Source of the DNA: Longimicrobiales bacterium
GTDB taxonomy: Bacteria > Gemmatimonadota > Gemmatimonadetes > Longimicrobiales > Gaopeijiaceae
NCBI GenBank assembly: GCA_029245345.1
Contig: JAQWPM010000021.1
Location: 62,001 to 126,000, forward strand
Direction of reading: 5' to 3'
DNA length: 64,000 nt
Below are positions 57,937 through 59,859 of the stretch, piece after piece. Both the position numbers and the translations under genes were made by a program. How positions within the stretch are numbered: position 1 is the first letter of the stretch; each line of letters opens with the position of its first letter. The notes under the pieces were generated by a model, which made no database searches, had not been told where the DNA came from, and worked only from the letters and a program-made list of their open reading frames with translations.

Positions 57937-59649
57937 TTAATCCATCAGCTCTAGGTCGAGTTCTTGTACCGCCTTCTCTAGGCGGGGTTCCTGGCGATAA
58001 AGGGCCTTCAATGTGTCTTCGCGGACCTCATCTTCAGTGACCCGAGCGGGACCTTCCACGGGACTTTCCGAGCTCGGGGCCGCCAATGCCACCGGACGGC
58101 CTAGGTAAGGGCTCAGTCCTCGGATGATCGTAGCCCGGACCGTCGCTTCCCCGATGCGTTCCGAGGCAGGCCCCGGCAACAACGTGATTTCTACGGCGCC
58201 GTCGTCGAGTTCGCGGACCGTCGCGGACCGCAGGAACGCGCTCAGACCTCGGGGTACGTGGTTGCCCGAATCGAGCCATCTCGTCCAGGCTTCTTCCACC
58301 CGAGTTGATGGCACGATGTCATCCTCCGGGATCTCGGAGAGCACAACGGCCTCTGGGGCCTCCTCGATCACTCCATTCACCGGCGTTGCCTGCGACGCCG
58401 ACACGCTCGCCACTTCTTCCGGCGGCGGCGATGCTGCGACGGTGGTGGAGGCTCTTGAACCGCCGCTGCTTCCACCCGCCGCGCCACCCTCAGAAGGCGG
58501 AGCTCCCCCGAGCGCGTGAATCAGCTCCTCGAGCGCGACAGTGCGATCGAGGTAGCCGAGCCGTAACAGAAGCATCTCGATCAGTACACGTGGATTGGGA
58601 CTGCGGCGAAGGCTACCCTGCGCCTCGAGTTCAGCTGCCGCGGCCAGCATCCTCACGAGATCGCCCGACTCGAATAGTTGGGCACGCGCAGCGAACTCGC
58701 CCTTCAATTCCGGTCGAATATCCATCGCCGTATCTGGAGCCAAGCGCAGCCGGAGCAGTGCTCGGAGCGTGTCCAATAGGCCGTGATAGAACTCGACGAG
58801 ATCGTATCCTTCGTCGACCAACCGCTCGACCAAGTCGAAGATCTCAGCGTGACGATCTTCAGAGAGAATATCGAGGAGATCGAGGTATCTCTCCTCCTCC
58901 ACTAGGCCGAGTACTCGGCGAACCGAATCGGCTTCGACGTCTCCACCCGTGAGGGAAATGACCTGGTCGAGAAGCGACAGTGCATCGCGCATTCCGCCGT
59001 CTGCCTTGCGGGCGATGAGGCGCAACGCGTCCTCGGGCGCCTTCGCACCTTCCCGCTCCAGGACCTTGGCAAGCTGACGCATGATGTCTGCGACACCGAT
59101 ACGTCGAAAATCGAATCTCTGGCACCGCGAGAGAATTGGCGCTGCGGATTGCTGGATCTTCTGCGGCTCTGTGGTCGCGAACACGAAGATGACCCGCGGG
59201 GGCGGCTCCTCGAGGATCTTGAGGAGGGCGTTCCAGGCCTCGCGGGTAAGCATGTGCGCCTCATCCACGATATAAATCTTGAAACGCCCATCGCTCGACG
59301 GAGCATACATCGCGCGCTCTCGCAGATCCCTCGCATCGTCGACACCTCGATTCGACGCCGCGTCGATCTCGACTACGTCGAGAGCCGTGTGCCCTGCCCA
59401 GATCCGACCGCAACTGTCGCACTCTCCACACGGTTCGCCGCCGTCGGTTCTCTCGGAGCAGTTGAGCGCCATGGCAAGAACGCGGGCCAGCGTCGTCTTT
59501 CCGACGCCTCTAGGGCCGCAGAACAGGTAGGCGTGTCCAACACGCCCCCCGGACACCGCTCGGCGCAGAGTCTCAGAAACGTGCTCCTGGGTCGCCACGT
59601 CGGCGAACGAGCGCGGCCGGTACTTTCTAGCTAAGGCAGTATGCGCCAA
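57937..59649 (-). CDS. dnaX: DNA polymerase III subunits gamma/tau
   Basis: The clamp-loader ATPase. It starts TALARKYRPRSFADV, with Walker A GPRGVGKTTLARVLA (about 45-59), the zinc site CSERTDGGEPCGECDSC, Walker B IVDEAHMLTREAWNALLK and sensor 1 FATTEPQKI. The C-terminal third is a disordered Ser/Pro/Glu linker and a small tau-like domain. 570 residues. The start is TTG 59649, with no clear ribosome site. No A-run frameshift signal was seen, so a separate gamma form by that route is unlikely. It follows the SRP RNA gene. Confidence 0.95.
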   Translation of the reverse strand: MAHTALARKYRPRSFADVATQEHVSETLRRAVSGGRVGHAYLFCGPRGVGKTTLARVLAMALNCSERTDGGEPCGECDSCGRIWAGHTALDVVEIDAASNRGVDDARDLRERAMYAPSSDGRFKIYIVDEAHMLTREAWNALLKILEEPPPRVIFVFATTEPQKIQQSAAPILSRCQRFDFRRIGVADIMRQLAKVLEREGAKAPEDALRLIARKADGGMRDALSLLDQVISLTGGDVEADSVRRVLGLVEEERYLDLLDILSEDRHAEIFDLVERLVDEGYDLVEFYHGLLDTLRALLRLRLAPDTAMDIRPELKGEFAARAQLFESGDLVRMLAAAAELEAQGSLRRSPNPRVLIEMLLLRLGYLDRTVALEELIHALGGAPPSEGGAAGGSSGGSRASTTVAASPPPEEVASVSASQATPVNGVIEEAPEAVVLSEIPEDDIVPSTRVEEAWTRWLDSGNHVPRGLSAFLRSATVRELDDGAVEITLLPGPASERIGEATVRATIIRGLSPYLGRPVALAAPSSESPVEGPARVTEDEVREDTLKALYRQEPRLEKAVQELDLELMD

Positions 59650-59726: not shown

Positions 59727-59826
59727 GTGCCCCAGGCGACCCGCAGCGACGATCACCACACTTACCGCTGCTACCGGCGAGGTCCTGACGGAATTCATGG
59801 GCTTTCACCCTACGGACCTGGGGCAC
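59727..59826 (-). ncRNA. ffs: Small bacterial SRP (4.5S-like) RNA
   Basis: A 100-base RNA whose ends pair perfectly over 10 bases (GTGCCCCAGG with CCTGGGGCAC). The domain IV core reads CCGTCAGG, an 11-base cap, then AGCAGCGGTAAG, the conserved Ffh-binding asymmetric loop (as GUCAGG...AGCAGC in E. coli). The cap is ACC-TCGCC-GGT, so the apical loop is a 5-base UCGCC instead of a GNRA-type GGAA. TTTT follows the 3' end. It lies just before dnaX, as in Bacillus, and has its own promoter. It partners Ffh in membrane-protein targeting. Confidence 0.88.
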
Positions 59827-59830
59827 CACG

Positions 59831-59859
59831 AAGCTATTCTGGGGCGTCGGGTCGGTCAA
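59831..59859 (-). promoter_or_regulatory. Promoter of the SRP RNA gene
   Basis: TTGACC (59859-59854), 17 bases, TAGCTT (59836-59831) on the minus strand. The first base of the predicted RNA lies 5 bases after the -10, right where transcription should start, which supports both calls. Confidence 0.75.

What the first reader, a model, noticed from the sequence alone, without database searches (positions are those of the whole stretch)
59727..59859. SRP RNA gene with a non-GNRA apical loop
The 100-base RNA has perfect 10-bp ends, the Ffh-binding GUCAGG/AGCAGC core and its own TTGACC-N17-TAGCTT promoter, so it looks functional. Yet the apical cap is ACC-UCGCC-GGU, a 5-base loop, where bacterial SRP RNAs usually show a GGAA or related tetraloop that helps activate the Ffh-FtsY GTPases. 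If real, the partner proteins may have adapted.
Basis: partly seen in the sequence, partly recalled or inferred. Interest (0 to 1): 0.6.

Follow-up and report, generated by a model that had tools for sequence, protein, structure and literature searches.

The report
Signal recognition RNA with five-base loop
The RNA that helps this Gemmatimonadota bacterium deliver proteins to its membrane ends in a five-base loop instead of the usual four-base one; relatives across most of its phylum share the change while the partner-protein contacts stay the same, so the loop has probably just gained one flipped-out base.

Summary
A single-copy, 100-nt small bacterial SRP RNA lies on the minus strand at 59826-59727, just upstream of dnaX. 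Its apical loop is five bases, UCGCC (Rfam RF00169, 36.4 bits, E 2.4e-6, just under the gathering score of 40). It is not a sequencing error: all 69 SRP RNAs read from the same family have 5-base loops. Across the sampled phylum (Gemmatimonadota), 93 of 114 genera carry only pentaloops, 18 only tetraloops, 3 both. The deepest lineages keep canonical GGAA, and loop size has changed repeatedly. The pentaloops are tightly patterned: position 3 always G, position 2 always C or U, position 4 free, ends G..A, U..C or C..A. The tetraloops have the same end bases (G..A or U..C). Best reading, inferred and not shown: a GNRA-type fold with one extra flipped-out base, still serving as the FtsY docking tip. 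The idea that partner proteins adapted is not supported: the FtsY lysine equivalent to E. coli Lys399 is present in 54 of 54 genomes, and no FtsY or Ffh column separates pentaloop from tetraloop genomes. A new variant of a known kind, of modest interest.

The parts
59727..59826 (-). SRP RNA gene (ffs, 4.5S-like, 100 nt); single hairpin with 10-bp perfect ends
   Evidence: RF00169 36.4 bits E 2.4e-6; fold z -4.2; only copy in the genome; homologue-based model R1 scores the same 100 bases at 107.8 bits (R1 was built from an alignment that includes this sequence)
59784..59789 (-). GUCAGG, 5' side of the Ffh M-domain binding core (symmetric loop)
   Evidence: read from sequence; nearly invariant columns in 43 relatives
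59773..59783 (-). apical cap ACC-UCGCC-GGU: 3-bp stem and the five-base loop
   Evidence: sequence; outer pair A-U/C-G/G-C compensatory in relatives, none broken
59767..59772 (-). AGCAGC, 3' side of the Ffh binding core
   Evidence: read from sequence
59831..59859 (-). promoter: TTGACC-N17-TAGCTT
   Evidence: sequence; TTGAC-N17..20-TANNNT upstream of 69 of 135 homologues, 0.1 expected
57937..59649 (-). dnaX (DNA polymerase III gamma/tau), immediately downstream on the same strand
   Evidence: NCBIfam TIGR02397/NF004046 over cut-off; dnaX-like start within 450 nt downstream in 112 of 138 homologous loci

Best explanation
This is the organism's only recognisable SRP RNA. It binds Ffh through the standard GUCAGG/AGCAGC core, and its tip serves, as in E. 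coli, as the transient docking site for FtsY in the early targeting complex. The tip is a five-base loop that most likely keeps the GNRA-type backbone fold: bases 1 and 5 form the non-Watson-Crick closing pair (U.C here; G.A or C.A in relatives), base 3 is the obligatory purine, and one extra base, most likely base 4, is flipped out. Shown here: the gene, its single copy, the promoter, the five-base loop, its conservation and its position-specific pattern across the phylum, and the unchanged FtsY tether residues. Inferred: the three-dimensional fold, which base is extruded, and that FtsY docking still works the same way.
For: RF00169 match, single copy. Covarying cap stem. All 69 same-family SRP RNAs read have 5-base loops, as do all 38 genera tallied in the window's order. 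Loop pattern over 111 genus-loop combinations: position 3 G 111/111; position 2 C/U 111/111; position 4 C, A or U; ends G..A 21, U..C 31, C..A 55, C..C 3, U..A 1. Tetraloops of the same phylum are G..A (GGAA, GAAA, GAGA, GGCA) or U..C (UAAC, UAGC). Genus g62 holds U..C loops of both sizes (UAAC, UAGC and UCGCC, UUGCC, UCGAC) and g93 holds GAGA and GUGAA, so the end bases persist when the size changes. GNRA folds in pentaloops with a looped-out base are known in solved structures, including insertion before the last base and protein contact by the extra base (PMC12550061). FtsY Lys399 equivalent 54/54, Arg402 31/31 in pentaloop genomes. Two SRP RNAs found by the same pattern in records not labelled Gemmatimonadota have loops of the same type: CCGCA in L096, GUAAA in the actinomycete L168.
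Against: No structure was computed or measured; nearest-neighbour folding only shows an open 5-base loop, slightly less stable for UCGCC (-1.8 kcal/mol) than for GGAA (-2.8) in the isolated cap. The commonest class (C..A) and this one (U..C) are not GNRA by sequence; only GUGAA, GUGCA, GCGCA and GCGAA are literally GNR(N)A. The preference for a pyrimidine at position 2 is stronger than a GNRA fold requires.
Confidence: 0.62

Rival explanations
1. The pentaloop is a genuinely different tip: base 4 or the whole loop makes new contacts with FtsY or Ffh, and the proteins co-adapted.
For: Strong position-specific conservation of the loop; looped-out bases contact proteins in the boxB, Cas6 and RNase MRP examples (PMC12550061).
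Against: No FtsY column (54 genomes) or Ffh column (20 genomes) separates pentaloop from tetraloop genomes; Lys399 and Arg402 equivalents kept. The loop size flips within single genera, which is hard to square with a specialised protein interface.
Confidence: 0.15
2. The tetraloop function is relaxed in this phylum (for example the FtsY docking step is dispensable), and the loop drifts.
For: Several loop types coexist and sizes interconvert: 10 changes on the best FtsY tree, at least 4 forced by well-supported branches.
Against: Drift would not keep G at position 3 in 111/111, pyrimidine at position 2 in 111/111, or the matched ends; FtsY Lys399 would not be expected to stay invariant.
Confidence: 0.12
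3. A pseudogene, chance hairpin or sequencing error in the loop.
For: Score under Rfam's gathering cut-off.
Against: Single copy with conserved promoter, compensatory changes in 14 pairs, same loop in a second species of the genus and in many genera.
Confidence: 0.01

Closest known systems
Bacterial small SRP RNA (Rfam RF00169; E. coli 4.5S RNA, ffs)
   Same: Length, single hairpin, GUCAGG/AGCAGC Ffh core, 3-bp cap stem, near-perfect terminal stem, single copy.
   Different: Five-base apical loop instead of a GNRA (GGAA) tetraloop; own sequence scores 36.4 bits, below the gathering score of 40.
GNRA-like pentaloops with a looped-out base (phage boxB RNAs, CRISPR repeat bound by Cas6, RNase MRP; PMC12550061)
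   Same: Proposed fold: non-canonical 1-5 pair, purine in the stack, one base flipped out. GUGAA/GUGCA relatives fit GNR(N)A literally.
   Different: Not structurally tested here; UCGCC and CCGCA depart from the GNRA sequence. The term 'signal recognition' does not occur in that paper's main text.
Chloroplast SRP RNA of Physcomitrella patens (PMC5115805)
   Same: SRP RNA of bacterial type whose apical loop is not a tetraloop.
   Different: Its loop is about 10 bases and lowers SRP54 affinity; here the loop is 5 bases, tightly patterned and conserved across most of a phylum.

Membership tests
Bacterial small SRP RNA (RF00169) | Covariance-model match to sequence and structure | tested here: met
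   Full-length 1-97, E 2.4e-6 locally and 6.2e-6 genome-wide; 36.4 bits is below the 40-bit gathering score, but relatives with the same kind of loop exceed it (40 of 96 genomes)
Bacterial small SRP RNA (RF00169) | Ffh-binding core GUCAGG / AGCAGC flanking a 3-bp cap | tested here: met
   Sequence; nearly invariant in 43 relatives
Bacterial small SRP RNA (RF00169) | Helix supported by covariation | tested here: met
   14 of 30 consensus pairs with both sides changed; cap pair A-U/C-G/G-C with none broken
Bacterial small SRP RNA (RF00169) | Partner proteins Ffh and FtsY encoded in the genome | tested here: met
   Ffh TIGR00959 550 bits, FtsY TIGR00064 325 bits, both over cut-off
GNRA tetraloop (the usual SRP RNA tip) | Four-base loop G-N-R-A | tested here: not met
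   Loop is UCGCC, five bases
GNRA-like pentaloop fold with an extruded base | Three-dimensional GNRA stack with 1-5 non-canonical pair and a looped-out base | not testable with these tools
   Only the sequence pattern is available: R at position 3, free position 4, matched ends
FtsY docking at the SRP RNA tip | Tether residues equivalent to E. coli FtsY Lys399 and Arg402 present | tested here: met
   Lys399 54/54; Arg402 31/31 pentaloop and 20/23 tetraloop genomes

The most novel reading that the evidence does not exclude
Across most of Gemmatimonadota the near-universal GNRA tip of SRP RNA has been replaced by a five-base module whose flipped-out base adds its own contact to the Ffh-FtsY early complex, giving a lineage-wide variant of the SRP-receptor docking step without visible change at the known FtsY contact residues.
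Probability: 0.2. Interest if true: 0.6.

Novelty: new variant of a known kind. Interest (0 to 1): 0.4.

Why it matters
The tip of SRP RNA is treated as a conserved GGAA/GNRA element needed for fast SRP-receptor assembly. A phylum in which it is mostly five bases, switches size repeatedly and keeps a strict position pattern is a natural mutagenesis series. It suggests which features of the tip matter (end pair, purine at position 3) and which do not (loop length), and it can be tested with purified parts. Practically, it goes some way to explain why Rfam's default threshold misses many Gemmatimonadota SRP RNAs.

Tried and rejected
Sequencing error or pseudogene: rejected by relatives, covariation, promoter conservation and single copy. 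A second, normal SRP RNA in the genome: none. Plus-strand structure: none. Partner-protein adaptation: no column in FtsY (54 genomes) or Ffh (20 genomes) separates loop sizes; within genus g62 a few FtsY and Ffh positions differ but only 3 against 4-5 genomes, so this is uninformative. L158, a core-like sequence in a tRNA cluster, did not fold better than shuffles. Literature: no held paper found on Gemmatimonadota SRP RNA loops or SRP RNA pentaloops; older subscription papers on SRP RNA alignments are not held, so priority could not be fully checked.

Full report
What is there. The minus strand of the window carries a 100-nt SRP RNA gene at 59826-59727. The default Rfam scan does not list it because it scores 36.4 bits against a gathering score of 40, but the permissive scan matches RF00169 end to end with E 2.4e-6. 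The minus strand folds far better than its shuffles (z -4.2); the plus strand does not. It is the only RF00169 match in the genome at E up to 10. dnaX follows 77 nt downstream on the same strand, an arrangement seen in 112 of 138 homologous loci. The TTGAC / TANNNT promoter is conserved: 69 of 135 homologues carry it at 17-20 nt spacing against 0.1 expected.

Is the loop real. 69 SRP RNAs from the same family (69 genomes) were read and every one has a five-base loop. In 43 aligned pentaloop RNAs the outer pair of the cap changes between A-U, C-G and G-C with no broken pair, and 14 of 30 pairs show changes on both sides. The loop is therefore closed by a true 3-bp stem and is five bases long.

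How it is distributed. Records in the named collection identify the clade as Gemmatimonadota. A pattern search allowing loops of 3-7 bases was run over 395 genomes of the phylum and 99 of the order, with RF00169 on genomes that gave no pattern match and a further pattern search of 38 genomes. Compiled by hand from the listed matches, 114 genera gave loops: 93 only pentaloops, 18 only tetraloops, 3 both. The three families of the window's own order have pentaloops only. The other class of the phylum (f11) and families f8 and f10 have GGAA. On an FtsY tree of 54 genomes rooted on f11, loop size changes 10 times (at least 4 forced by well-supported branches). The listing was truncated, so these are counts of what was seen, not of all matches.

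What the pattern says. Over 111 genus-loop combinations position 3 is G in all, position 2 is C or U in all, position 4 is C, A or U, and the ends are G..A (21), U..C (31), C..A (55), C..C (3) or U..A (1). Tetraloops in the same phylum are G..A (GGAA, GAAA, GAGA, GGCA) or U..C (UAAC, UAGC). Within genus g62 U..C loops of both sizes coexist, and within g93 GAGA and GUGAA coexist. The end bases therefore persist when the size changes, which is what one expects if a pentaloop is a GNRA- or URRC-type tetraloop with one base inserted between the purine and the last base. Such GNRA-like pentaloops with a looped-out base, including insertion before the last base, are known from solved structures (PMC12550061), and UMAC loops are known to mimic GNRA (same paper). 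This step is inference: no tool here predicts loop geometry.

The partner proteins. In E. coli FtsY first binds the RNA tip (early state) and the GTPases are activated later at the distal end (PMC5454536, PMC4737761). Lys399 lies in the FtsY site that contacts the RNA (PMC6059433). That Lys399 is the residue tethering the tip is from general knowledge (Shen and Shan 2010, as cited in PMC7775534), and the E. coli numbering was counted on a recalled C-terminal sequence that agrees with the solved-structure alignment. The equivalent lysine is present in all 54 Gemmatimonadota FtsYs and the Arg402 equivalent in all 31 from pentaloop genomes. No column of FtsY (54 genomes) or Ffh (20 genomes) has disjoint residues between pentaloop and tetraloop genomes. 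The window genome's Ffh and FtsY pass their NCBIfam cut-offs. So the proteins look ordinary, and the data favour a loop that still does the ordinary job.

How it compares. Functionally and by descent it is a small bacterial SRP RNA. It is not a member of the GNRA tetraloop class by sequence. Whether it is a GNRA-like pentaloop is a structural question left open. Non-tetraloop SRP RNA tips are known from a moss chloroplast (PMC5115805). No held paper was found that describes the Gemmatimonadota pentaloop; priority cannot be settled with the library at hand.

Verdict. Observation confirmed; interpretation half right. A conserved, phylum-level loop variant of a known RNA, worth a short note and a simple biochemical test, with no sign of a remodelled pathway.

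Noticed in passing
L240-L246, L248-L250, L254, L256 (family f5), L043, L053, L054, L063 (family f1, genus g6): In several genera the Ffh-binding core reads GCCAGG / AGCAAC instead of GUCAGG / AGCAGC: a paired U.G to C.A exchange in the symmetric loop, occurring with both tetraloops (GAAA) and pentaloops (CCGCA).
   Followed up: partly
genomes G219, G221, G224, G240, G347, G380 (family f9) and scattered others (G014, G046, G019, G210, G288, G109, G189, G198, G209, G158): No convincing SRP RNA was found with RF00169 or with a model built from the pentaloop RNAs (or 9 for most of these), although some are single-contig assemblies; either very divergent or lost to the first-look filters (only the 80 or 150 best candidates were scored).
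   Followed up: partly
L168:1341-1071 (minus): An actinomycete large SRP RNA (RF01854, 166.5 bits) with a five-base GUAAA apical loop, i.e. also of the GNR(N)A type.
   Followed up: no
L096:1626-1731: An SRP RNA-like sequence with a CCGCA pentaloop in a bacterium with no phylum in its record title (RF00169 27.3 bits; model R1 40 bits).
   Followed up: no
window 27139-26924 (minus): Cobalamin riboswitch, 78.2 bits.
   Followed up: no
G265 (contig ends C143, C187) and G354 (C52, C137): Two copies of the SRP RNA core in one assembly, probably assembly overlap for G265, where the matches begin at base 58 and base 62 of their contigs.
   Followed up: no
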